This document shows positions 9,046 to 18,782 of a DNA stretch of 64,000 bases, piece by piece (position 1 is the first letter of the stretch; each line of letters starts with the position of its first letter). The DNA is from Polaromonas hydrogenivorans. Its GTDB lineage: Bacteria > Pseudomonadota > Gammaproteobacteria > Burkholderiales > Burkholderiaceae_C. The translations under genes and the position numbers were made by a program. The stretch is taken from the NCBI RefSeq assembly GCF_040105105.1, contig NZ_CP157676.1, forward strand, positions 310,001-374,000, given 5' to 3'. The notes under the pieces are model-generated. The model was not told the DNA's origin. It saw only the letters and a program-made list of their open reading frames with translations, and did not search any database.

Positions 9046-9179
9046 GGTGATGGACGGATGGTCCGCCCCCAAGGGGCGCGCGCAGGGAAGCGGGTGGACG
9101 CAACACCACATGCAAGGACTACCCGCAACCGTGAAACCCCTTCTGTTGGCGCGCCGGTTTTGCTGGCAAAGTGGTGTCC

Positions 9180-10139
9180 ATGAGTTCACACGCGCTGCTG
9201 CAACAAATCGAGGCTTTGGAGCAAGGCGTCGCGCAGCGTGACCTGGAGATCGGCGCGCTGCGCCTGGCCATCGACAAACTCACGCTGGAGTTGTTCCATC
9301 TCAGGCGCATGCGCTACGGGCGCTCCAGCGAGAAGGTGGACAGCGCGCAGTCAGCAGTAAAGGCGCCTGGCGCTGCACTCGTACCAAAGGGGGAAGCGGG
9401 TCAGGCCGTGCAAAGCGCCCCTGTCGTCGACCTTGAGGACGACCGCCACAAGCGCCAGGCGGCGGCCTGCCGCACCGCCCCCCGGCAGTTGCCCGGGCAC
9501 CTGCCGCGCCAGGAGGTGACGCACCTTCCATCGCCACAATGCACCTGCCCGGGGTGCGGAACCGCGCTGCGCCAGATTGGCCAGGATGCCTCGGAAGTGC
9601 TGGAGTACCAGCCCGGTGTCTTCAAGGTCATGCGCCACGTGCGCCCCAGGTTCGCGTGTGCCCAGTGCCACACGATCGTACAGGCGAGCGCGCCGAGCCG
9701 TCCGATCGAGCGCGGCTTGGCCGGCGCTGGCGTGATCACGCAGGTACTGGTGGGCAAGTTCTGCGACCACCTGCCGCTTTACCGCCAGAGCCAGATCTAC
9801 GCCCGCCAGGGCGTGGTGGTTGAGCGCTCCACGCTGGCGGACTGGGTGGCCGGCGCGGCGCGGCTGCTCCAGCCTTTGGCCAACGCCGTGCGCCGCTACG
9901 TCCTGAGCGCGGGCAAGATCCACACCGATGACACGCCCGTGCCAGTCCTGAGCCCGGGCCGGGGCACGACGCGCACGGCCCGGCTGTGGGTGTATGCGCG
10001 CGACGACCGTCCCGGCGGCGATGCGTCGCCGCCAGCGGTGTGGTTCGAGTATTCCCCGGACCGCAAGGGCGAGCATCCCAGGGGCCACTTGGCAGGCTTT
10101 GCCGGCACTTTGCAGGCCGACGCGTTCGCCGGTTATGTT
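9180..10139 (+). pseudogene. tnpC: IS66 TnpC transposase, N-terminal part (fragment 1 of 3)
   Basis: The first 320 residues of the DDE transposase are present. An N-terminal coiled segment (SSHALLQQIEALEQG, LRRMRYGRSSEKVD) is followed by a Cys-rich zinc-binding motif (CTCPGCG, CAQC) and the start of the catalytic domain, with IHTDDTPVPV holding the first catalytic Asp. The frame leaves IS66 sequence at FAGY and ends in foreign residues (VAAEFM, stop at 10157) contributed by the RIT1 inverted repeat. The sequence continues with FAGYDALFADG at 13539. A GTG nine bases upstream is an alternative start. Confidence 0.92.
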
Positions 10140-10163
10140 GCGGCAGAATTTATGTAGCGGCGG
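10125..10163 (+). repeat. RIT1 left terminal inverted repeat (39 bp)
   Basis: This is the exact reverse complement of 13484-13522. It contains ATGTTGCGGCAG and AATTTATGTAGCGG and starts with TTCGCCGG, which is also IS66 coding sequence. Confidence 0.95.
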
Positions 10164-10261
10164 TGGCCGGTTGTACAGGAAGCGAGTGGTATTTGTCGAC
10201 TGTTGACACAACATAGATTTCAGCGCCTTCTGACCTTCCAACCAACGTTCGGAGGTCTGCC

Positions 10262-11482
10262 ATGTCCAGGAAATCCACACACGCGAAGGTCGCAGGTAGT
10301 CGCCATCGCGAAGCGCCGTTCTTGCCGGAACGGGAGCGATATTTGCGCAACTGCGCGGATTCCGGCGCGACGCCAGGATCATTGACCATAAAGCGCAATG
10401 AACTCATTTGGATTGCTCGCCTTCTTCCCGCGACAGCGCCGCTAGGCATCGATATTGCTCAATTACATGAACTCGTGCAGCAGCGAGCATCGATGCATAC
10501 CGGCATCACAATGGGTACGCGAATGATCGTAGTCGCCAGACCGTGGCTGCGGTTCCTCGGCTGGTGGCGTGAACCAACCAAGGATCTTGCGTTTCAGGGC
10601 TTTCTCGACGGCTATATCAAATGGATGTGCGACGAACGAGGGTTCAGTCGATCCACAGTCGACCAATGGCAAGGAAGAATAAGGCAGTTCCTCCAGTGGT
10701 GCGAGGAGACGGGGCGGGATTTGAAGGGACTGCGGCCAACCGATATTGACGACTACTTCATTCGGAATGCGGCGCGCTGGGGGCGGATATCGATGAAGAC
10801 AATGACCGGGGCACTGCGCATATTTCTGCGTTACGCGGCAGCCCATGGTCTATGCGACTCCCGCCTTGCCACCGCACTGCGCACACCCCGCATGTACGCT
10901 CAGGAATCGTTGCCATCCGCGCCAGGATGGACCGACGTCCAACGGATTCTCGCCACGACCGAGACCGACAAGCCGGCCGACATCAGAAACCGCGCAATCC
11001 TGATGCTCCTGTCGATCTACGGCATGCGTCGCGGCGAGGTAGTTGCTTTGCGCCTCGATCAGGTGGACTGGGCTGGGCGAAAGTTGCATGTATTTCGTTT
11101 GAAACGCCGGCAGCCGCAGGTCTATCCGTTGTTGCCCACTGTCGCGCAAGCATTGGCCCGCTATATCGACACCGTGCGCCCGCACTGTTCTGCCCCAGAG
11201 ATATTCCTCAGGCTGAAAGCACCACAGCGGGCGTTGACCCCGGCGGCGCTATTCGACTTCGTCAATGGCAAGTTCAAAGCTCTGGGAATCGAGACAAAGC
11301 ATCGTGGCCCTCACGCATTGCGCCATGCTTGCGCTGCGCGGCTGGTCGCACAGGGATTGAGTTTCAAGGAAATCGGTCACCACCTTGGTCACCGAAGCGC
11401 ATCGGCCACGATGACCTATGCCAAGGTCGACATGCGTGCGCTGCGTGAAGTCGGCGACTTCGATCTGGGAGAGCTGTCATGA
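10262..11482 (+). CDS. RIT1 tyrosine recombinase A
   Basis: The 406-residue product is a phage-integrase-type tyrosine recombinase. The N-terminal SAM-like DNA-binding domain spans about 100-210 (GFLDGYIKWMC to LRIFLRYAAAHGLC). The catalytic domain carries Arg in YGMRRGEV (about 254), HALRH (about 351), LGHRS (about 374) and the nucleophile Tyr in MTYAKVD (about 385). All catalytic residues are present. The ATG follows TTCGGAGGTCTGCC. Its stop overlaps the next gene's ATG by 4 bp. In RIT elements the three recombinases are thought to act together. Confidence 0.92.
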   Translation: MSRKSTHAKVAGSRHREAPFLPERERYLRNCADSGATPGSLTIKRNELIWIARLLPATAPLGIDIAQLHELVQQRASMHTGITMGTRMIVVARPWLRFLGWWREPTKDLAFQGFLDGYIKWMCDERGFSRSTVDQWQGRIRQFLQWCEETGRDLKGLRPTDIDDYFIRNAARWGRISMKTMTGALRIFLRYAAAHGLCDSRLATALRTPRMYAQESLPSAPGWTDVQRILATTETDKPADIRNRAILMLLSIYGMRRGEVVALRLDQVDWAGRKLHVFRLKRRQPQVYPLLPTVAQALARYIDTVRPHCSAPEIFLRLKAPQRALTPAALFDFVNGKFKALGIETKHRGPHALRHACAARLVAQGLSFKEIGHHLGHRSASATMTYAKVDMRALREVGDFDLGELS

Positions 11483-12423
11483 AGCTGATCGATGTGGTGA
11501 CGGCATATGTGGTTATGCAACGGTCGCTGGGCATGCGATTCACCGCCGCTGACCGGCTCCTGCGGCAGTTTGCCCGTGAAATGGGCAATGTCGGCATGGC
11601 CGATGTCCGGCCTGAAGCTGTCGTGACGTTTCTGCAAGGAGCCGGGGCACTCACGGCCACATGGCGGCTCAAGTACAACGTGCTGTCGGGCTTATATCGG
11701 TTTGCCATCAGCCGGGGATACTGCGAGGCATGTCCACTTCCAACAAATGTGCCAAAACTGCCCCCATCCCAAACGCCCTATGTCTACTCGACGGGAGAGA
11801 TCCGCCGCCTGATAGACGCCACACCCTCGTTGTACAACTACCGCAGCCGACAGCAGGCATCCATGTTTCGGACTTTGATCTTGCTGCTGTATGGCAGCGG
11901 CTTGCGCATCGGCGAGGTGCTGCGGCTGACCATGCCCGATGTGGACTTGATCGACCGGATCATCATCGTGCGCGACACGAAGTTCTTCAAGACCCGTCTG
12001 GTGCCGATTGGCCCACAGCTATCTGCTGAACTGGCCGCTCATATGGATCGCCGCCGGCACCTGCCGATGCCGGCAGGAGAAAGTTCGCGCCTGTTCACCT
12101 CATACACAGGTCAGGGATGGCCTTATTCCCAGGTCATCACGTTGTTCCAGCGCCTGCGCCTTGCAGCTCACATCGAATGCCCAGAAGGGGAATTGCATCC
12201 ACCACGCCTGCATGATTTGCGCCATACCGCAGCGGTACATCGCGTTCTTGCATGGTATCGTGATGGCAAGGACGTGCAACGCCTGCTTCCGCAACTGGCG
12301 ACCTACCTGGGCCATGTAGACATCAAGTCGACCCAGCGATATTTGCGCATGACCCCGGAGCTGCTCGAAGAAGCAAGCCGCCGCTTCGCACGGTACGCGC
12401 AATGCGGAGATGATCATGAATGA
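11479..12423 (+). CDS. RIT1 tyrosine recombinase B
   Basis: The product has 314 residues. An N-terminal core-binding domain (YVVMQRSLGMRFTAADRLLR) precedes the catalytic domain with Arg in GSGLRIGEVLRL (about 142), HDLRHTAAVHR (about 244), LGHVD (about 276) and the nucleophile Tyr in STQRYLRMTPEL (about 287). The GKDVQRLLPQLATYLGH segment and TPELLEEAS ending are hallmarks of the middle recombinase of RIT trios. All catalytic residues are seen. It overlaps both neighbours (ATGA upstream, 14 bp downstream), indicating one mRNA with translational coupling. Confidence 0.92.
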   Translation: MKLIDVVTAYVVMQRSLGMRFTAADRLLRQFAREMGNVGMADVRPEAVVTFLQGAGALTATWRLKYNVLSGLYRFAISRGYCEACPLPTNVPKLPPSQTPYVYSTGEIRRLIDATPSLYNYRSRQQASMFRTLILLLYGSGLRIGEVLRLTMPDVDLIDRIIIVRDTKFFKTRLVPIGPQLSAELAAHMDRRRHLPMPAGESSRLFTSYTGQGWPYSQVITLFQRLRLAAHIECPEGELHPPRLHDLRHTAAVHRVLAWYRDGKDVQRLLPQLATYLGHVDIKSTQRYLRMTPELLEEASRRFARYAQCGDDHE

Positions 12424-13414
12424 CCGGAACCTGCTTGGCCCGTGGATCCGACGCTTCCTGCTCGAACATATGGTGGCGGAACGCAACTTCTCGCTTAACA
12501 CCCAGGCCAGCTACCGCGACACGTTGACTTTACTGTTGCCTTTCTCGGCCAAGATCGGTGGTTTCGCAATCGACCGAATGACAGTTGAGGATATCTCGCC
12601 AGCCGTCGTGCGCCGGTTTCTGGACCATGTCGAATATGATCGGCATTGCAGCAGCGCCACGCGCAATCTGCGGCTGAGCGCGATCCACTCGCTGGCACGC
12701 TTCATCGGAATGCATTCGCCAGTTCATCTGTCCTGGTGCGGCGATGTAAGGTCAATCCCTTTCAAAAAAACAGCCAAGACCCTGGTCGGCTATCTAGAGA
12801 AGCCGGAGATGGACGCATTGCTGGCATCGCCAGACCGCCGCACGGCAATGGGCGCACGCGACTATGCCTTGCTCCTGTTCCTGTACAACAGCGGAGCACA
12901 TGCCGACGAAGCCGCGAAGTTGACCATCGGACGTTTGCAGCTCAGTGAGCCGGCATCGGTTCGCATACTTGGCAAAGGAAACAAGACACGGGTTTGTCCG
13001 CTATGGCCAGCAACGGCGTCCGTTCTGACACGACTCGTAGCCGGACGCAGTGCGAACGATACCGTATTTCTTGGGCGGACCAATCAGCCGATGACACGGT
13101 TCGGCGTACATCGTATCGTCACCCAATATGGCGAGCATGCGGCTAAATCTCTCGTTACGATGAAAGGAAAGCATATCAGCCCGCACTCGGTCAGGCACAC
13201 GACGGCCGTTCACCTGCTGCGCGCTGGGGTCGATATCAACACGATCCGAGCATGGCTGGGACATGTCTCCCTTGATACAACAAACATCTACGCCGAAGTT
13301 GACCTGGAGATGAAGGCAAAAGCGCTTGCCAGCGTGGATATCTCGGGACTGCCTGCAGCGGCACGCCGTTCGACCGCGCTGCCTTCGCTGATGACGTTTC
13401 TGAAGCAACTATAG
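12410..13414 (+). CDS. RIT1 tyrosine recombinase C (first catalytic Arg replaced by His)
   Basis: The product has 334 residues, or 332 from the ATG at 12416. The N-terminal binding domain (MVAERNFSLNTQASYRDTL) and the catalytic fold of XerC/D-type recombinases are clear. The second Arg box HSVRHTTAVHLL (about 257), LGHVS, and the nucleophile Tyr in TTNIYAEVD (about 294) are present. The box that normally reads GAR-x-x-E is GAHADE here, so the first catalytic Arg is His. The equivalent protein of RIT2 keeps the Arg. Either the subunit is catalytically impaired or it has a structural role. Third gene of the trio. Confidence 0.9.
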   Translation: MIMNDRNLLGPWIRRFLLEHMVAERNFSLNTQASYRDTLTLLLPFSAKIGGFAIDRMTVEDISPAVVRRFLDHVEYDRHCSSATRNLRLSAIHSLARFIGMHSPVHLSWCGDVRSIPFKKTAKTLVGYLEKPEMDALLASPDRRTAMGARDYALLLFLYNSGAHADEAAKLTIGRLQLSEPASVRILGKGNKTRVCPLWPATASVLTRLVAGRSANDTVFLGRTNQPMTRFGVHRIVTQYGEHAAKSLVTMKGKHISPHSVRHTTAVHLLRAGVDINTIRAWLGHVSLDTTNIYAEVDLEMKAKALASVDISGLPAAARRSTALPSLMTFLKQL

Positions 13415-13483
13415 TTTGGAGGCGATATCTTATGTGCGGGAACGCGAGTCAGCTCTCATTGGCGGATTCCTGACTCGATCCCG

Positions 13484-13522
13484 CCGCCGCTACATAAATT
13501 CTGCCGCAACATAACCGGCGAA
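13484..13522 (-). repeat. RIT1 right terminal inverted repeat (39 bp)
   Basis: Exact reverse complement of the left repeat at 10125-10163. It ends in CCGGCGAA, the inverted copy of the flanking target sequence. Confidence 0.95.
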
Positions 13523-13546
13523 ATGTTGTGCACAACATTTCGCCGG
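13515..13546. repeat. Perfect 32 bp palindrome at RIT1 right junction
   Basis: The order is CCGGCGAA, then ATGTTGTG, then CACAACAT, then TTCGCCGG: an inverted copy of the target, a 16 bp self-complementary spacer, and the direct target copy that belongs to IS66 tnpC. The half-spacer shares ATGTTG with the inner part of the element's own inverted repeat. A palindrome with the same plan is found at the RIT2 right junction. Confidence 0.95.
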
Positions 13547-13601
13547 CTACGACGCCTTGTTTGCCGATGGCCAGGTCGTCGAGGCTGCTTGCTGGGCTCA
13601 T
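13539..13601 (+). pseudogene. tnpC: IS66 TnpC transposase, central fragment (fragment 2 of 3)
   Basis: About 56-63 bases of tnpC survive between the two RIT elements. Read in frame they give FAGYDALFADGQVVEAACWAH, a diagnostic part of the IS66 catalytic domain. The fragment starts at TTCGCCGG and ends at GGCTCAT (13595-13601), which is also the outer end of the RIT2 inverted repeat. It connects in frame to fragment 3 at 18179. Confidence 0.9.
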
Positions 13602-13622
13602 TATCCCGAGTGCAGTTTTATC
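13595..13622 (+). repeat. RIT2 left terminal inverted repeat (28 bp)
   Basis: Exact reverse complement of 18131-18158. It starts with GGCTCAT (IS66 sequence) followed by TATCCCGAGTGCAG. Confidence 0.93.
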
Positions 13623-13682
13623 TTGAGGAAAGCCAGTTGCCTGCAGCGTTCATGCGGTCGATCTATGGCCGAACTCCACATA

Positions 13683-14784
13683 CTCACCAGTCAGTAATAT
13701 AGGAGACAGAAGGATGGCGGAAAAATGACTTCACCAGGGCTGGGTCGTTCGCGATGTTTTGCATCTGCGCATCCACGCGGCACTGCAGGTTTTCACCCGC
13801 CTTCAGCGGTGAGCGCGCCACACCCGTACGCTTGGCGTGGCTCCATACCAGTTCGTCTGGATTGAGGTCTGGGGCATAACCGGGCAAGAAGTGAAGCGTC
13901 AGTTTCCCGTGAGTGCTGGCCACATACTCCTTGACGCACGCTGACTTGTGGGCAGGCAGTCCATCGACCACCAGACGCACTGGTTTTTTGCGCCGGCGCA
14001 TCAATTTCTTGAGCAACTGGGCGAACAATTCCCCCGTCAAACCGCCTTTGTAAGTGGCAAACCAGAAAGCACCTTTGGCGCTGATGGCCGATGCTGCACT
14101 GATGCTCTGGCGTTGCCCTGGGCGCTCAACCACCGGGGTTTGCCCACGGGGTGCCCAGGTCTTGCCATGCACTGCATCGGCCCGAAAGCCGGACTCGTCC
14201 CAGAACAAAATGTCGGCCCCGCTGCCTCGGGCTTCATTCGCAATGGCCGGGTATGTCTGGCTTTTCCAGCGCGCTACCGCGTCAGGGTCGCGCTGGTAAG
14301 CGCGCTCCAAGGGTTTTTGCGCTGTCAACCCCAAGCGCGCCAGTAGCGCCCCAATGCTGGCCAGCGAAAGGGATACTTCAAAGCGCTCCAGCACAAGCTC
14401 TTGCACGATTTGGCGCGTCCATAGTCCGAAGTCAAAACCGTACTGGTCGGGGCGCTTGCCATTGACCCAGCGAAAAACCTGGCGTTCTTGCGCGGGGGTG
14501 AGCTTGCGCGGTCGCCCCGTCCCTTTGCTCGAACGCAGTGCCCGCAGTCCTCGTCCGCGCCCCTTGACCATCGCACGGCACTTGTAGCCCCACGAACGAT
14601 GCATACCCAGCGATGCGGCTACATCGCCAGGATGCTCGCCTTCGTTCATGCGTTGCACCGCCAGAACCCGCATTTCCTCCAGCGTGTTGTGGGCCAATTT
14701 GCGTCCGTCTCGTTTCATGCCACGTAGGAGAAATATCGAACGACACAGTTCCCAAATTTGTACGCTTAATTACTGACTGGTGAG
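13683..14784 (-). mobile_element. IS630-family insertion sequence inside RIT2
   Basis: The 1102 bp element has perfect 16 bp terminal inverted repeats: CTCACCAGTCAGTAAT at 13683-13698 and ATTACTGACTGGTGAG at 14769-14784. It is flanked by a TA dinucleotide on both sides (13681-13682 and 14785-14786), the target duplication of the IS630/Tc1/mariner superfamily. It encodes a single intact transposase. It lies between the RIT2 left end and the third RIT2 recombinase gene and so is the innermost and probably youngest layer. Confidence 0.95.
13684..14718 (-). CDS. IS630-family transposase
   Basis: The 344-residue DDE transposase has an N-terminal HTH (GEHPGDVAASLGMHRSWGYK) and a second winged region (TGRPRKLTPAQERQVFRW). 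The catalytic residues are the Asp in ILFWDESGFR, the Asp in LVVDGLPAHKS, and the Glu in YAPDLNPDELVWSHAKR. The length is normal for the family and no frameshift is seen, so the gene is probably active. The stop codon lies inside the left terminal inverted repeat. The product cuts and pastes the element into TA targets. Confidence 0.95.
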   Translation of the reverse strand: MKRDGRKLAHNTLEEMRVLAVQRMNEGEHPGDVAASLGMHRSWGYKCRAMVKGRGRGLRALRSSKGTGRPRKLTPAQERQVFRWVNGKRPDQYGFDFGLWTRQIVQELVLERFEVSLSLASIGALLARLGLTAQKPLERAYQRDPDAVARWKSQTYPAIANEARGSGADILFWDESGFRADAVHGKTWAPRGQTPVVERPGQRQSISAASAISAKGAFWFATYKGGLTGELFAQLLKKLMRRRKKPVRLVVDGLPAHKSACVKEYVASTHGKLTLHFLPGYAPDLNPDELVWSHAKRTGVARSPLKAGENLQCRVDAQMQNIANDPALVKSFFRHPSVSYITDW

Positions 14785-14798
14785 TAAGTTTGGATAGC

Positions 14799-15809
14799 TC
14801 ACAGGGACTGCAAGAACGCGAGCAGGTTGGCCTTGGGCTTCCATGCCTTCGCGTTTGCCGGCTCGATACCGGCCTTCTTCCAGAAAGCCTCCATGGCTTC
14901 TTGCTTCATCTGCAGGTTGGTCGTGATGTAGCGGCCGGTCGTGGCGACGCTGGTGTGGCCGAGGTAGTCGCGGATCACCGTCACGTCGGTTCCCGACTGC
15001 AACAGCGCCACGGCGCAGCTGTGGCGCAGGACATGCGGCGTGATGCGTTTGCGCCGCAGCACGGGGTTGTCGCGAGCCGCCGCCGCCGCGTGCTTGCTGA
15101 GAATGTAGGCAACGCCGTCGCGCGTCAGAGGCTGGCCATGGCGATTGAGGAATACGCACTGCCCGCTGGCAGCATCTGACATACCGCGCAGTCGGTGCAG
15201 CGCGTTGGCCGTCTCGGTCCACAGCGGCAACAGCCGCTCTTTCCTGCCCTTGCCACGCAGGCGAACCTGCCTGGGTGCGGCCAATTGCAGATCGTCCCAC
15301 CGAAGCCCGGTGGCCTCGCTGACCCGGGCACCACAGTTGTACAGGAAGAGCAGCAGCGCGCGGTCGCGCCATCCGTCGAAGGTGCGCTGGTCGGGCATGC
15401 CAATGATCAGGCGGGCGTCCTCTACCTCAAGGTAGGTCGCCGGTCGCTGCCGCGCCTTCTTCGCCGGGATGGCCAACACCCGCACGAACTGCTGTGAGTG
15501 CGCCAGATCGTTGCGCAGCAAGTGCTTGAAGAAGCTGCGGATCGCCGCCCGGCGGCAATTGCGTGTGGCTGCTGAATTTGATCGCTGCGCCTCGATGTGA
15601 TCCAGGAATCGCGTCACCGCGTCGGCGTCGATGTCGCCGATCTGCAAGGAGGCAATCCCTTGGCCGCGCTGCTCGGCGACAAACTTGAACAGCATCGTCA
15701 ACGCATCGCGGTACGCTCGGATCGTGTGAACGCTGGCACCTCGCTGCTTGGGCAGGTACTGCGTGAAGTACGACTGCACATAAGCGAACAGCGACGGCAC
15801 GCGGCTCAT
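14799..15809 (-). CDS. RIT2 tyrosine recombinase C
   Basis: The product has 336 residues. The N-terminal core-binding domain spans about 15-110 (QYLPKQRGASVHTIRAYRDA). The catalytic domain carries Arg in YNCGARVSEATGL, HVLRHSCAVALL, LGHTSVATTG and the nucleophile Tyr in GRYITTNLQMK, so the full set is present, unlike its RIT1 counterpart. The C-terminal tail EAMEAFWKKAGIE is typical of the third RIT recombinase. Its start overlaps the stop of recombinase B by 4 bp. The 3' end lies 14 bp from the IS630 insertion, which did not damage it. Confidence 0.92.
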   Translation of the reverse strand: MSRVPSLFAYVQSYFTQYLPKQRGASVHTIRAYRDALTMLFKFVAEQRGQGIASLQIGDIDADAVTRFLDHIEAQRSNSAATRNCRRAAIRSFFKHLLRNDLAHSQQFVRVLAIPAKKARQRPATYLEVEDARLIIGMPDQRTFDGWRDRALLLFLYNCGARVSEATGLRWDDLQLAAPRQVRLRGKGRKERLLPLWTETANALHRLRGMSDAASGQCVFLNRHGQPLTRDGVAYILSKHAAAAARDNPVLRRKRITPHVLRHSCAVALLQSGTDVTVIRDYLGHTSVATTGRYITTNLQMKQEAMEAFWKKAGIEPANAKAWKPKANLLAFLQSL

Positions 15810-16774
15810 GGCAGGCGGCGTTTGCTGCGCGAGTGCTGCTCGAAGCGCTGGCTCGCAAGTTGCAATAGCTCAGGCGTGGCCTTGAGGTATACCTGCGTAC
15901 CAAGGACGCTCTGGTGTCCGAGATAGGCCGACAGCCACGGCAGCTTCGCGTGCACGTCCACGCCTTCGACGGCCCAGGCGGTCAGCCGATGCACGGCAAA
16001 GGCATGCCTGAACTCGTAAGGCCTGGCGCCCGAGCGACCGCGTGGCGGCTTCAAGCCGAGATCGCGTAGCAGACCTCGCAACGCCTCCGAGGCCGCACGC
16101 ACGGTGAGCGCTGATCCATCGCGACGGATGAACAGTGTCAAGGGGTCGTCGGCACCGCTTGCCGCCAGGACTTCCTCGCGTTGGCGCAGGTAGTGACGGA
16201 GTTCGAGGACCAGATCTTCGCGGATCGCCAGGATGCGCGAGCGCCCTTTGCTTCGTTGCACTGTCAGGACGGCTCTGCGCAGATCCACGTCGGCCAGGTG
16301 CAGCTTGGTGGCCTCGCCCAGCCGCATCCCGGTGCAGTACAGCACGAGCGTGAGCGCGCGCAACATCGCCCCCCACATGTTTCGACCCTCGTGCCTCGTG
16401 GCGGCGTCCAATAAGACAAGCACCTCTTCGCGGCTGAAGATATAGGGCACAAACACCGACTCCTTGACCGGTGCCACCGCGTGATCGGGGACAAAGCCAT
16501 GCGGATCGCTGCGGCGGCGGAAGAGGCACAACTGGCGCACCACGCCGAACTCGTTGCCCACCGTGATGGCCTTGCGGCCCTCGATTCGCGTTGCCCACTG
16601 CGTCACCGCCTGGTCCAACGCCACCGGCCGTTCGCCGTACTGGTCACGCACGAAGCGCACGAAACTGTTGAGCACGAACTCGGCGCGGCCGTAGCCCATG
16701 CCCATGGCCCGCTTGAACGCCAGGAACTGCGTTGCGTCGTGGGCCAGGATGTCGGCGGTAACCTTTGTGTTCAT
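15806..16774 (-). CDS. RIT2 tyrosine recombinase B
   Basis: The product has 322 residues. The N-terminal domain reads FLAFKRAMGMGYGRAEFVLN. The catalytic residues are Arg in YCTGMRLGEATKL, the second box FRHAFAVHRLTAW, LGHQS, and the nucleophile Tyr in TQVYLKATPELL. The segment VHAKLPWLSAYLGH and the TPELLQLAS ending match the middle recombinase of RIT1. The gene overlaps both neighbours by 4 bp (ATGA), giving a single translationally coupled operon. It looks intact. Confidence 0.92.
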   Translation of the reverse strand: MNTKVTADILAHDATQFLAFKRAMGMGYGRAEFVLNSFVRFVRDQYGERPVALDQAVTQWATRIEGRKAITVGNEFGVVRQLCLFRRRSDPHGFVPDHAVAPVKESVFVPYIFSREEVLVLLDAATRHEGRNMWGAMLRALTLVLYCTGMRLGEATKLHLADVDLRRAVLTVQRSKGRSRILAIREDLVLELRHYLRQREEVLAASGADDPLTLFIRRDGSALTVRAASEALRGLLRDLGLKPPRGRSGARPYEFRHAFAVHRLTAWAVEGVDVHAKLPWLSAYLGHQSVLGTQVYLKATPELLQLASQRFEQHSRSKRRLP

Positions 16775-18006
16775 CGCGGCACCGGCAAAGAGACCTCGCG
16801 CAGCGACTGCGTCGCAATGCGCACGTAGGCCGATACCGAATCCGCAGCGCGATGGCCGAGCAGATCCGACAACACTTGCGCCTTGGTGCCTACGTCGAGT
16901 TGCCGCGCGGCGAACGAGTGCCGCAAGACGTGGCTGCCCAGGTAGGGAGCTTTGATGCCGGCGGCCTTGGCATGTTTGATGAGAATGTGCCGCACCGCCG
17001 ACGACGCCGTGAGGGCGCCGAACGGCACCTTCATCTGGACGAACACATGCCGTGTGGGTAGGTGTGGTGGACGCCCATTGCGCAAGTACCGGGCCAATAC
17101 CTTGGCCACCGGGGGAAGCAGGGGCAGGACGAAGTTGACACCGGTCTTCGGGCGCGACATCTGAAGCGTGCCGGCGCTCCAGTCGATGTCTTGCAGTTGC
17201 AAGCCGATCACTTCACCGGCGCCCAGGCCGTAGGTGCTCATCATTAACAGCAGCGCGTGGTCGCGCAGCCCGCACGCCGTGCTCGTGTCCACCGCACGCA
17301 AAAGTCGCTGGACGTCCTCCCAAGGCAAGGCCCGCCGCGGCCGTTCAAACTTCGGCTGCACCGGTGAGATCACTGCATCGGCCAGGTCAACGCGAATGCG
17401 CCCGCTGGCCAACAGGAACCGGGCAAAGGATCTGACCGTGCTGGCGATGTCGGCTGTCGTCGAGCGGGCATAGCGACCGGCGCACTCGATGAGGAAGGCG
17501 TCGATGTCGGGTAAGCGCAACCGGCGCCAGGTCTTGCCTGAACGCCCCAAGTGCTCGAGCAGCTTGCCGACGTGGTCGAGCTTCTTGTGGATCGTGACTT
17601 CGGGGTTGCCGCGCTGCTGCCCAAGCTGGGCAGCGTAATCGCGCAGGACCGCCGTTGCCGGCGGCGCACGGCGTTCGATGGGCCTCCACGGTGGTACCGG
17701 CATGCCCATGACCTCGTAGACGCGGCGCAGCGAGCGCATCGACGAACTCGCAAGACTGAGATTGGCGGTGTTGATCCGGCGTGAATGCCCGTACCAGGCT
17801 TGGAAACGCTTGACCCCATCGCGCGTTAGCTCGGCGGCTTCATCAAGACCGAGGGCACGGCAGTAGCGTCGGAACCGACCGATCCACTGCAGGTATTGCT
17901 GCGCGCTGCTCTGGCAAACACAGCGATCGCCGCGCCACACGCGCAGGATGTCCCGAACACGGGGCGTGGGCTCGGATTGCTGTGTCCTGGATGACGGAGT
18001 GACCAT
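16771..18006 (-). CDS. RIT2 tyrosine recombinase A (first catalytic Arg absent)
   Basis: The product has 411 residues. It keeps the N-terminal binding domain (QQYLQWIGRFRRYCRALGL) and most of the catalytic domain: HVLRHSFAARQL (about 357), LGHRAADS, and the Tyr in VSAYVRIATQSL. The box that normally carries the first Arg reads YGLGAGEVIGL (about 259) where RIT1 recombinase A has YGMRRGEV, so that Arg is replaced by Gly. The rest of the protein is undamaged, which suggests a functional variant rather than decay. First gene of the trio, starting at an ATG 146 bp from the palindromic junction. Confidence 0.9.
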   Translation of the reverse strand: MVTPSSRTQQSEPTPRVRDILRVWRGDRCVCQSSAQQYLQWIGRFRRYCRALGLDEAAELTRDGVKRFQAWYGHSRRINTANLSLASSSMRSLRRVYEVMGMPVPPWRPIERRAPPATAVLRDYAAQLGQQRGNPEVTIHKKLDHVGKLLEHLGRSGKTWRRLRLPDIDAFLIECAGRYARSTTADIASTVRSFARFLLASGRIRVDLADAVISPVQPKFERPRRALPWEDVQRLLRAVDTSTACGLRDHALLLMMSTYGLGAGEVIGLQLQDIDWSAGTLQMSRPKTGVNFVLPLLPPVAKVLARYLRNGRPPHLPTRHVFVQMKVPFGALTASSAVRHILIKHAKAAGIKAPYLGSHVLRHSFAARQLDVGTKAQVLSDLLGHRAADSVSAYVRIATQSLREVSLPVPR

Positions 18007-18130
18007 ACAAGCGACATACGCGAACCAGGCCAGATCGGATGCAAGGATCCATAGAATTCGCCGGATTTATGTGGGGTGACGCGCCAGGCCTGCTCCTCGT
18101 GCGGACAGTAACCTCATGCGTCGAGCCCCG

Positions 18131-18158
18131 GATAAAACTGCACTCGGGATAATGAGCC
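18131..18158 (-). repeat. RIT2 right terminal inverted repeat (28 bp)
   Basis: Exact reverse complement of the left repeat at 13595-13622. It ends in ATGAGCC, the inverted copy of the adjoining target sequence. Confidence 0.93.
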
Positions 18159-18185
18159 TTATCTGGAGCTCCAGATAAGGCTCAT
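18152..18185. repeat. Perfect 34 bp palindrome at RIT2 right junction
   Basis: The order is ATGAGCC, TTATCTGGAG, CTCCAGATAA, GGCTCAT: inverted target copy, 20 bp self-complementary spacer, direct target copy. The plan is the same as at RIT1. It is on the same side with respect to tnpC although the element orientation is reversed, so the palindrome follows the target strand and not the element's own left or right end. Confidence 0.95.
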
Positions 18186-18782
18186 GCCCGGAGAAAATAC
18201 TATGAAATCCACAAGGGCCAAGGCGAGATGCCCGGCACGCTGGCGCACCAGGCGCTGCTGCGCATCGGGGTGCTGTACGCCATCGAAAAAGATATCCGGG
18301 GCCAGCGTGCCGAGGAGCGCCGGCGCCAGCGGCAAAGCCGCGCCCGGCCCCTGGTCGAGGCGCTGCACGGCTGGCTCCAGCAAGCCCTGGGCCAGCTCTC
18401 GGCCAAGTCGTCCATGGCGCAGGCCATTGGCTACTCGCTCAACCATTGGCAGGCGCTCACGCGTTTCGTGGACGACGGGCACATCGAGATGGACAACAAC
18501 GCGGCCGAGCGGGCGCTGCGCGCGGTCGTCCTCGGGCGCAAAAACTACCTGCACTTTGGCTCGGACGCCGGCGGCGAGCGCGCCGCCGTCATCTACACCC
18601 TGATCGGCTCGTGCAAGCTCGGCGGCATTGACCCTTATGCCTACCTGCACCATGTGCTGGGGCGCATCGCCGACCATCCGATCAACCGGATTGACGAGTT
18701 GCTGCCCTGGCGGGTGGCCGAGCGGCTCAGGCCTGCGTGGCAAGCTGCCCAGGAAACGCAGGAAATGGCGCGCGCGGCTTGA
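18179..18782 (+). pseudogene. tnpC: IS66 TnpC transposase, C-terminal part (fragment 3 of 3)
   Basis: From GGCTCAT the frame reads AHARRKYYEIHKGQGEMPGT and continues for about 200 residues to a stop at 18782. It includes RFVDDGHIEMDNNAAERALR, which holds the catalytic Glu, and GRKNYLHFGSD. The terminal DUF4372-like tail (DPYAYLHHVLGRIADHP, LLPWRVAERL) is complete. With fragments 1 and 2 it would make a normal IS66 transposase of about 540 residues. On its own an ATG at 18228 could start a 184-residue remnant, which lacks the first catalytic Asp. Confidence 0.92.

What the first reader, a model, noticed from the sequence alone, without database searches (positions are those of the whole stretch)
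10125..18185. Two RIT insertions in one IS66 transposase, each with target-matching inverted repeats and a perfect palindrome at the same side
Seen directly: RIT1 has a 39 bp and RIT2 a 28 bp perfect terminal inverted repeat. The outermost 8 bp (TTCGCCGG) or 7 bp (GGCTCAT) equal the IS66 tnpC sequence at each insertion point. At the tnpC-downstream side of both, an inverted target copy, a self-complementary spacer (16 or 20 bp) and a direct target copy make perfect palindromes of 32 and 34 bp. The inner half of each spacer partly copies the element's own repeat (ATGTTG; TATC-n-n-GAG). The elements point in opposite directions, but the palindrome is on the same target strand side. This is unlikely by chance and suggests that RIT integration either chooses targets resembling its end or copies target sequence in inverted form onto the element, for example through a hairpin intermediate. 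I do not know of a description of such a rule.
Basis: partly seen in the sequence, partly recalled or inferred. Interest (0 to 1): 0.9.

Follow-up and report, generated by a model that had tools for sequence, protein, structure and literature searches.

The report
RIT elements with mirror-image attachment sites
A poorly understood family of bacterial jumping genes seems to carry two back-to-back, mirror-image docking sites, which would explain why it inserts in either direction while a short palindrome lands on the same side of a given target site, and why its outermost bases match the gene it broke.

Summary
Both RITs read X-o-R…R'-o'-s-o-Y: a 6-bp overlap o (CGCCGG, GGCTCA), repeat R and a 20-bp palindromic spacer s. 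The 32- and 34-bp palindromes are the longest in the window. In 38 RITs resolved at both ends (one per element) the overlaps are diverse (33 distinct) but agree with the target-side copy at 5.13 of 6 bases (shuffled 1.85).

At target sites shared by several RITs the palindrome keeps the same target side, whichever way the element points. Near-identical copies in single strains show why: overlap variants and an asymmetric spacer stay fixed relative to the element in both orientations. Uninterrupted relatives of four targets indicate that the X-side overlap is the target's and the Y-side one came with the element (one of the four is less clean).

Best explanation: a circular intermediate with a mirror-symmetric attP of two tyrosine-recombinase cores (8-bp arm, 6-bp overlap, 8-bp arm); either integrates by a 6-bp exchange like that of GInt, SE and Tn554. 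Target-matched ends then reflect homology-guided targeting, and the inverted copy is the unused second core; copying is not needed. A folded, single-stranded attP remains possible. RIT transposition is experimentally untested.

The parts
9171..10132 (+). IS66 tnpC, upstream part (X side of RIT1), ending in overlap o_X
   Evidence: DDE_Tnp_IS66 E=4e-45
10127..10132 (+). RIT1 overlap o_X, CGCCGG (target-side copy)
   Evidence: register
10133..10163 (+). RIT1 left repeat R, arms TTATGTTG and, starting 17 bp further in, TTATGTA
10262..11482 (+). RIT1 ritA, tyrosine recombinase (406 aa)
   Evidence: Phage_integrase E=1e-26
11479..12423 (+). RIT1 ritB, tyrosine recombinase (314 aa)
   Evidence: Phage_integrase E=7e-20
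12410..13414 (+). RIT1 ritC, tyrosine recombinase (334 aa)
   Evidence: Phage_integrase E=4e-29
13484..13514 (-). RIT1 right repeat R' (inverted copy of R)
13515..13520 (-). RIT1 inner overlap o_i (inverted CGCCGG), the unused second core in the model
13521..13540 (.). RIT1 20-bp palindromic spacer AAATGTTGTGCACAACATTT
13541..13546 (+). RIT1 outer overlap o_O, CGCCGG; tnpC resumes at 13547
13547..13600 (+). 48 bp of tnpC between the two RITs, followed by RIT2 o_X GGCTCA (13595-13600)
13601..13622 (+). RIT2 repeat R at the ritC end
14799..15809 (-). RIT2 ritC (336 aa)
   Evidence: Phage_integrase E=6e-35
15806..16774 (-). RIT2 ritB (322 aa)
   Evidence: Phage_integrase E=1e-18
16771..18006 (-). 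RIT2 ritA (411 aa)
   Evidence: Phage_integrase E=1e-21
18131..18152 (-). RIT2 repeat R' at the ritA end
18153..18158 (-). RIT2 inner overlap o_i (inverted GGCTCA)
18159..18178 (.). RIT2 20-bp palindromic spacer TTATCTGGAGCTCCAGATAA
18179..18184 (+). RIT2 outer overlap o_O, GGCTCA; tnpC resumes at 18185
18185..18782 (+). IS66 tnpC, downstream part (Y side)
   Evidence: DDE_Tnp_IS66 E=4e-39 and DDE_Tnp_IS66_C (on 18228-18779)

Best explanation
RITs move through a circle whose joint is mirror-symmetric: R'(ritC)-o2'-s-o1-R(ritA). It holds two tyrosine-recombinase core sites back to back, each an 8-bp arm, a 6-bp overlap and an 8-bp arm (consensus CCACATAA-o6-TTATGTGG), with 4 bp between them. 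Either core can recombine with a target site X-o-Y whose overlap resembles its own. The product is X-o(target)-R...R'-o'(unused core)-s-o(core used)-Y. So the element points either way, according to which core reacted, while the spacer palindrome always lies on the Y side of the target site. Because one core is renewed from the target at each integration, both overlaps come to match the favoured target motif, and the inner overlap can keep the spelling of an earlier target. Shown by sequence: the anatomy, the side rule at shared sites, the likely source of each overlap and the behaviour of tagged copies. Inferred: the circle itself, the positions of the cuts, the double-stranded nature of the reaction, and a possible assignment of three recombinases to three arm types (spacer arm, first R arm, second R arm 17 bp further in).
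For: Same anatomy in 38 RITs, one per element; palindrome at the ritA end in 24 and the ritC end in 14. A 39th locus, looked at last and outside these counts, shows it too (L112, all three overlaps TCGCAG). o_X/o_O agree 5.13/6, exact 19 of 38; shuffled mean 1.85, at most 3 exact in 2000 shuffles; 33 distinct o_O. Target side: flank comparison gave 73 X-X and 74 Y-Y same-strand matches and no opposite-strand match that I could place at a shared site; 13 IS66 elements, 7 with the palindrome at the ritA end and 6 at the ritC end, have it downstream in tnpC; both element orientations also in the methylase target of E. coli/Salmonella plasmids and chromosomes (4/4 of 8), a Kibdelosporangium serine-recombinase gene (2/4 of 6) and the R. 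etli helicase-like gene (1/1). Tagged copies: in E. coli 550, two 100% identical elements in opposite orientation both give ritA core CAGGTC, ritC core CGGGTC; the rare spelling is the outer o in one and the inner o in the other. The three Kibdelosporangium copies with unequal cores (1 A, 2 B) all give ritA core GGCCTC, ritC core AGCTTC. The asymmetric E. coli spacer keeps its direction relative to the element in both orientations (4 copies in one strain, 2 in another). Uninterrupted relatives of the targets: L032 relative TGGGGG (o_X 5/6, o_O 3/6), L154 relative GGCGCA (6/6, 4/6), L121 intact yhdJ CGGGTC (o_X 6/6, o_O 5/6), L033 three relatives: CGCTGG once (o_X 6/6) and TGCCGG twice. The element-borne spelling CAGTGG (outer overlap of L032) occurs in an uninterrupted IS66 gene elsewhere.
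Against: No circle was observed, and the registers come from software that looked for palindromes, so loci without one were not counted. Of 74 genome-contig loci examined, 37 reach far enough on both sides, and 19 of those 37 showed the full anatomy. For L033, two of three relatives have TGCCGG, which is closer to the outer overlap (5/6) than to o_X (4/6), so that case leans on the third relative and on the coded protein. Some RITs have no spacer at either end (L029, L030, L044, L046, L069, L089, L108, L153, L156), several of them with inverted copies or relatives of one target flank on both sides, and one has a spacer at both ends (L138). The model explains these only with a secondary event. 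The side is a property of the site, not of the gene family: at different sites of serine-recombinase genes L045 has the palindrome on the C-terminal side and Kibdelosporangium on the N-terminal side. The spacer halves match even in the central 4 bp outside the arms (27 of 38 self-complementary), which two independent double-stranded cores do not require. All three overlaps are equal in 17 of 38 elements, probably more than random drawing among target spellings would give (rough inference, not computed).
Confidence: 0.8

Rival explanations
1. The attP works folded: in a single-stranded or cruciform circle the palindrome forms a hairpin whose stem is one core (arm-o-arm) capped by 4 bases, and one strand is exchanged with the target, as recalled for integron attC and CTXphi attP. 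This is a version of the main model in a different DNA form.
For: The spacer halves covary: 30-38 of 38 pairs match at each of 10 positions, against shuffled means of 14-18 at the four inner ones. The predicted 94-nt RIT1 joint folds into one hairpin at -60.8 kcal/mol, z -19. The product with o_X from the target and o_O from the element is what a single-strand exchange would leave. SEs, a related kind, are thought to use a single-stranded circle or its replicated form (PMC10214605, passages).
Against: Perfect symmetry could also come from template-switch correction of palindromes or from selection for two equal cores. Some elements with several identical copies have imperfect spacers (E. coli, 7 of 10 pairs) and 13 of 38 have o_i different from o_O. 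No strand information is available.
Confidence: 0.3
2. The target overlap is copied in inverted form onto the element at integration.
For: o_i equals o_X in 20 of 38 elements, including both RITs of the window.
Against: o_i differs from o_X in 18 of 38. In E. coli L122 o_i stays CAGGTC beside target-side CGGGTC, and in Kibdelosporangium L114 o_i stays AGCTTC beside GGCCTC. L033 keeps TGGCGG in both palindrome arms beside CGCTGG.
Confidence: 0.06
3. The element flips in place after insertion (left end recombining with the inner core), which gives both orientations while the spacer stays with the target.
For: Both cores are present in the integrated form. Between two E. coli lineages the spacer is inverted relative to the element, with one mismatch.
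Against: Within each lineage the spacer follows the element in both orientations (WP4: 4 of 4 copies read; strain 550: 2 of 2 read).
Confidence: 0.08
4. RITs with no spacer at either end, or with one at both, arise by homologous recombination between two RIT copies inserted in opposite orientation, giving X-RIT-X' and Y'-s'-RIT-s-Y. An alternative is a second core reacting with a second target. This concerns the exceptional loci only.
For: Both predicted product types exist: X at both ends (L029, L030 and others) and a spacer at both ends (L138). Each of the nine spacers found by one spelling pattern in 11 records and genomes lies beside a RIT end.
Against: The reciprocal products were not found together in one genome, and the pattern would miss spacers spelled differently.
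Confidence: 0.6

Closest known systems
RIT (recombinase in trio) elements, Van Houdt et al. 2012 (PMC3414803, passages read)
   Same: Three overlapping tyrosine-recombinase genes, about 3.5 kb in all; an inverted repeat and an overlapping palindrome were noted, as was sequence variation at the ends; insertion in an IS66 gene was reported for C. metallidurans (PMC2864759, passage read).
   Different: In the passages read there is no 6-bp overlap, no two-core attP, no link of the ends to the target and no side rule; mobility is called undemonstrated.
GInt genomic islands (PMC5385486, passages read)
   Same: 6-nt staggered cuts, hybrid attL/attR, and integration frequency that depends in part on the identity between attI and attB.
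   Different: Four genes (ginABCD) and a cargo region; no palindrome or mirror-symmetric attI in the passages read.
Strand-biased circularizing elements (SE) and Tn554 (PMC10214605, passages read)
   Same: A 6-bp spacer in the joint of the circle is placed at one end of the new insertion and the target's 6 bp at the other.
   Different: One core in the joint, as described there; SEs need four genes (intA, tfp, intB, srap); for RITs the target specificity and movement are listed there as not tested.
Integron attC and CTXphi attP hairpins (recalled, no call)
   Same: A palindromic site that can fold into one double-stranded core.
   Different: RIT has its own three recombinases and two mirror cores; folding has not been tested.

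Membership tests
RIT element | three adjacent, overlapping tyrosine-recombinase genes in the order ritA-ritB-ritC | tested here: met
   both elements; ORF overlaps at 11479-11482 and 12410-12423 (RIT1), 16771-16774 and 15806-15809 (RIT2)
RIT element | terminal inverted repeat of about 28-34 bp with an overlapping palindrome | tested here: met
   39 and 28 bp, palindromes 32 and 34 bp
RIT element | demonstrated transposition | not testable with these tools
   No experiment; [quoted passage not shown]
SE | intA, tfp, intB, srap gene set | tested here: not met
   RIT1 (10133-13514) is filled by three integrase genes (10262-13414), with no room for two more genes; no separate tfp or srap search was run
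SE | 6-bp overlap, target copy at one end and element copy at the other | tested here: met
   for related RITs; in the window all three copies are equal, so it cannot be read there
GInt | ginABCD with a small helix-loop-helix protein and cargo | tested here: not met
   RIT1 holds only the trio; RIT2 adds an IS630-like insertion
Folded (attC-like) site | recombination of one strand in hairpin form | not testable with these tools
   Only predicted folding

The most novel reading that the evidence does not exclude
RITs use a mirror-symmetric double-core attP that is recombined as a folded hairpin by three recombinases acting on three arm types. The palindrome is rebuilt at each cycle by fold-back copying, and the unused core keeps a sequence record of an earlier target.
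Probability: 0.25. Interest if true: 0.88.

Novelty: new variant of a known kind. Interest (0 to 1): 0.72.

Why it matters
RITs were described in 2009 (as cited in PMC10214605) from trios of recombinase genes, but how they move and what their ends are remained open; [quoted passage not shown] The two-core reading fixes the ends to the base, predicts the circle joint and the target rule, explains the variable ends noted earlier, and offers three arm types for three recombinases. It makes movement directly testable, with near-identical multicopy elements already present in R. etli Mim1. It also gives a rule for annotating RIT insertions and their targets, several of which are conserved coding motifs of IS66, DNA methylase and serine-recombinase genes.

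Tried and rejected
Inverted target copying and in-place flipping were tested against tagged copies and rejected as the regular route. I first read the 1.1-kb inverted toprim flanks of L036 as duplicated target; the spacer lies outside them, so they belong to the element. Nucleotide searches for close relatives gave one plasmid relative of RIT1, only the IS630-like part of RIT2, none of the IS66 part in plasmids, and none of RIT1 in phages. Samples of 300 to 400 genomes gave few RITs. Several target genes looked like IS21 istA to me by recall, but Pfam gave only general helix-turn-helix families for two such flanks, so I do not claim it.

How the 38 were chosen: by eye, one per element. Spurious registers (L029, L030, L068, L088, L092, L096, L108) and loci with a palindrome but no resolved second end (L039, L053, L058, L067, L072, L074, L076, L086, L095, L109) were dropped, as was L138 (spacer at both ends). 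L118, L121 and L122 were set by hand and corrected. L112 was left out of the scripts by oversight; examined last, it fits. The bodies of L038/L040 and L048/L054 gave no megablast match, so the spacer agreement of L038/L040 is not used as evidence. The o_i/o_O identity is somewhat favoured by the finder, which scores palindromes; the o_X/o_O comparison less so.
Full report
Anatomy. Both elements are complete trios of tyrosine recombinases in one IS66 tnpC. Read along tnpC, both have the layout X - o - R - genes - R' - o' - s - o - Y. For RIT1, o is CGCCGG and s is AAATGTTGTGCACAACATTT. For RIT2, o is GGCTCA and s is TTATCTGGAGCTCCAGATAA. The 8 and 7 bp of the finding are the 6-bp overlap plus neighbouring bases. 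The two palindromes are the longest in the window.

Survey. A scan of genome contigs with a RitB alignment returned 80 loci, the best 80 of 505. Five are further copies of one Kibdelosporangium element. 74 of the other 75 went through the scripts; the last, L112, was examined at the end and fits. Plasmid searches and an E. coli search gave more. An end-finder that looks for R at both ends and a palindrome at one end, followed by selection by eye, gave 38 elements, counted once each; 25 of these come from the 74. Of the 74, 37 reach at least 1.6 kb upstream of the start of ritB and 1.5 kb downstream of its end, and 19 of the 37 show the full anatomy. The rest show one resolved end, R at both ends without a spacer, long inverted flanks, or nothing resolvable.

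General features (n = 38). The spacer is 20 bp with arms like TTATGTGG at both ends. R begins with the same arm, and a second one, TTATGTG, starts 17 bp further in. The palindrome is at the ritA end in 24 and the ritC end in 14. Overlap agreement: o_X/o_O 5.13 of 6 (exact 19 of 38; by position 25, 34, 32, 30, 38, 36), o_X/o_i 5.13 (20 of 38), o_i/o_O 5.34 (25 of 38). Shuffled pairings give 1.84-1.89, with at most 4 exact in 2000. All three are equal in 17; inner = outer but not X in 8; all differ in 8; X = inner in 3; X = outer in 2. There are 33 distinct outer overlaps.

Side rule. I compared translated flanks of up to 450 bp of 51 loci (38 elements plus 13 further copies), each set on the strand running from X to Y; flanks under 60 bp were left out (of the 38 elements, 35 X and 37 Y flanks were long enough). 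73 X-X and 74 Y-Y matches were on the same strand. 12 X-Y matches on the same strand are other sites in the same gene. Opposite-strand matches were 5 X-Y (all L045 against Kibdelosporangium copies) and 1 weak Y-Y (L040 against L045, 21 residues). L045 and Kibdelosporangium are both in serine-recombinase genes, but at different places: the Resolvase profile is split after position 78 in the one and 123 in the other, and the palindrome is on the C-terminal side in the first and the N-terminal side in the second. So the side belongs to the site, not to the gene family. The target groups were drawn from same-strand matches; the test is the lack of opposite matches at shared sites. Thirteen IS66 insertions, at several sites, have the palindrome downstream, in 6 at the ritC end and in 7 at the ritA end. 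Both orientations also occur in the methylase target of E. coli and Salmonella (8 loci), the serine-recombinase gene of Kibdelosporangium (6), the helicase-like gene of R. etli (2), and two pairs (L060/L071, L048/L054). One pair, L036/L106, has one orientation only.

Source of the overlaps. Uninterrupted relatives of four targets were read. L032: relative (97.9% identical flank) TGGGGG; o_X TGGAGG matches 5 of 6, o_O CAGTGG 3 of 6. L154: relative (94%) GGCGCA; o_X 6 of 6, o_O TGCCCA 4 of 6. L121: intact yhdJ of another E. coli (flank 100%) CGGGTC; o_X 6 of 6, o_O CAGGTC 5 of 6. L033: three relatives at about 90-91%; one has CGCTGG, equal to o_X; two have TGCCGG, at which o_X matches 4 and o_O (TGGCGG) 5 of 6, though o_X codes for the same residues and o_O would not. 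The X side is thus the target's in three clear cases and probably in the fourth. The element-borne spelling CAGTGG occurs in an IS66 gene elsewhere, so overlaps look like records of earlier targets. In 13 IS66 genes uninterrupted there (11 of the loci, plus L158 and L159) the RIT1 site has nine spellings and the RIT2 site four.

Tagged copies. Write the circle as R'(ritC)-o2'-s-o1-R(ritA). In E. coli 550 two 100% identical elements, one per orientation, both give o1 = CAGGTC and o2 = CGGGTC. The rare spelling is the outer overlap where the ritA core was used and the inner one where the ritC core was used. In Kibdelosporangium the three copies with unequal cores (L110, L113, L114; both orientations; 100% identical over 3.37 kb) all give o1 = GGCCTC and o2 = AGCTTC; the other three (L111, L115, L116, of which L111 and L116 carry an extra insertion) have GGCCTC in both. 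The asymmetric E. coli spacer reads the same from ritC to ritA in both orientations in WP4-S18-ESBL-07 (4 copies read, of 8 places with any match in that genome) and in strain 550 (2 copies read; AR_0017 agrees). This is what two cores on a circle predict. In-place inversion predicts a spacer fixed to the target. Between the two E. coli lineages the spacer is inverted once.

One element, two genes. In R. etli Mim1 nearly identical elements (99.98% over 4.1 kb) lie in an IS66 tnpC (L155) and in two copies of a gene annotated as helicase-related or N-6 DNA methylase (L154, L162). The target motifs differ in the protein they encode but carry GGCGCA on the X side in all three.

Folding. Spacer halves match at 38, 38, 38, 38, 38, 37, 30, 31, 33 and 32 of 38 from arm to centre. 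Shuffled means are 14-18 at the four inner positions and 20-36 at the outer six. 27 of 38 central 4-mers are self-complementary. The predicted RIT1 circle joint folds as one hairpin. Neither two double-stranded cores nor a 4-base loop needs a self-complementary centre, so a copying or correction process may maintain it. This is unexplained.

Exceptions. Some RITs have no spacer at either end. One in the window's own genome (L138) has a spacer at both ends and IS66 flanks in inverted orientation. Recombination between two RIT copies in opposite orientation would give both kinds; this is inference.

Literature. Word searches found five papers holding 'recombinase in trio'. I read passages of all five (in PMC8138268 the only passage was a reference entry). 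PMC3414803 mentions an inverted repeat with an overlapping palindrome and end variation; none of the passages states the overlap or side rule. Ricker 2013 and Nielsen 2017 are not held, so prior description there cannot be excluded.

Noticed in passing
window 13678-14789: IS630-like insertion (21-bp inverted repeats, transposase 13684-14718 on the minus strand) inside RIT2 between its ritC end and ritC; relatives in Polaromonas and Acidiphilium plasmids.
   Followed up: partly
L138 (own genome, contig C2 about 52-62 kb): A third RIT in the same contig with a spacer palindrome at both ends and about 2 kb of IS66 in inverted orientation on both sides.
   Followed up: partly
L140/L148 (own genome, contig C1 about 2429322): A RitB fragment 93% identical to that of RIT2 over 173 residues.
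   Followed up: no
L036; by similar inverted flanks also L068, L077, L079, L082, L084, L096: RIT next to two toprim-domain genes (annotated in L036) in inverted orientation; in L036 they lie inside a 1139-bp terminal inverted repeat, with the spacer palindrome outside.
   Followed up: partly
L034, L117, L119, L120: Four 100% identical RITs in one E. coli strain (three plasmids and the chromosome), all in DNA methyltransferase genes at the same coding motif: signs of recent movement.
   Followed up: yes
R repeats of 38 elements: A second arm TTATGTG starts 17 bp inside the first one; its TAT is present in 95-100% by position.
   Followed up: partly
spacer centres of 38 elements: The central 4 bp, outside the arms, are self-complementary in 27 of 38 although their sequence varies; no model here requires it.
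   Followed up: partly
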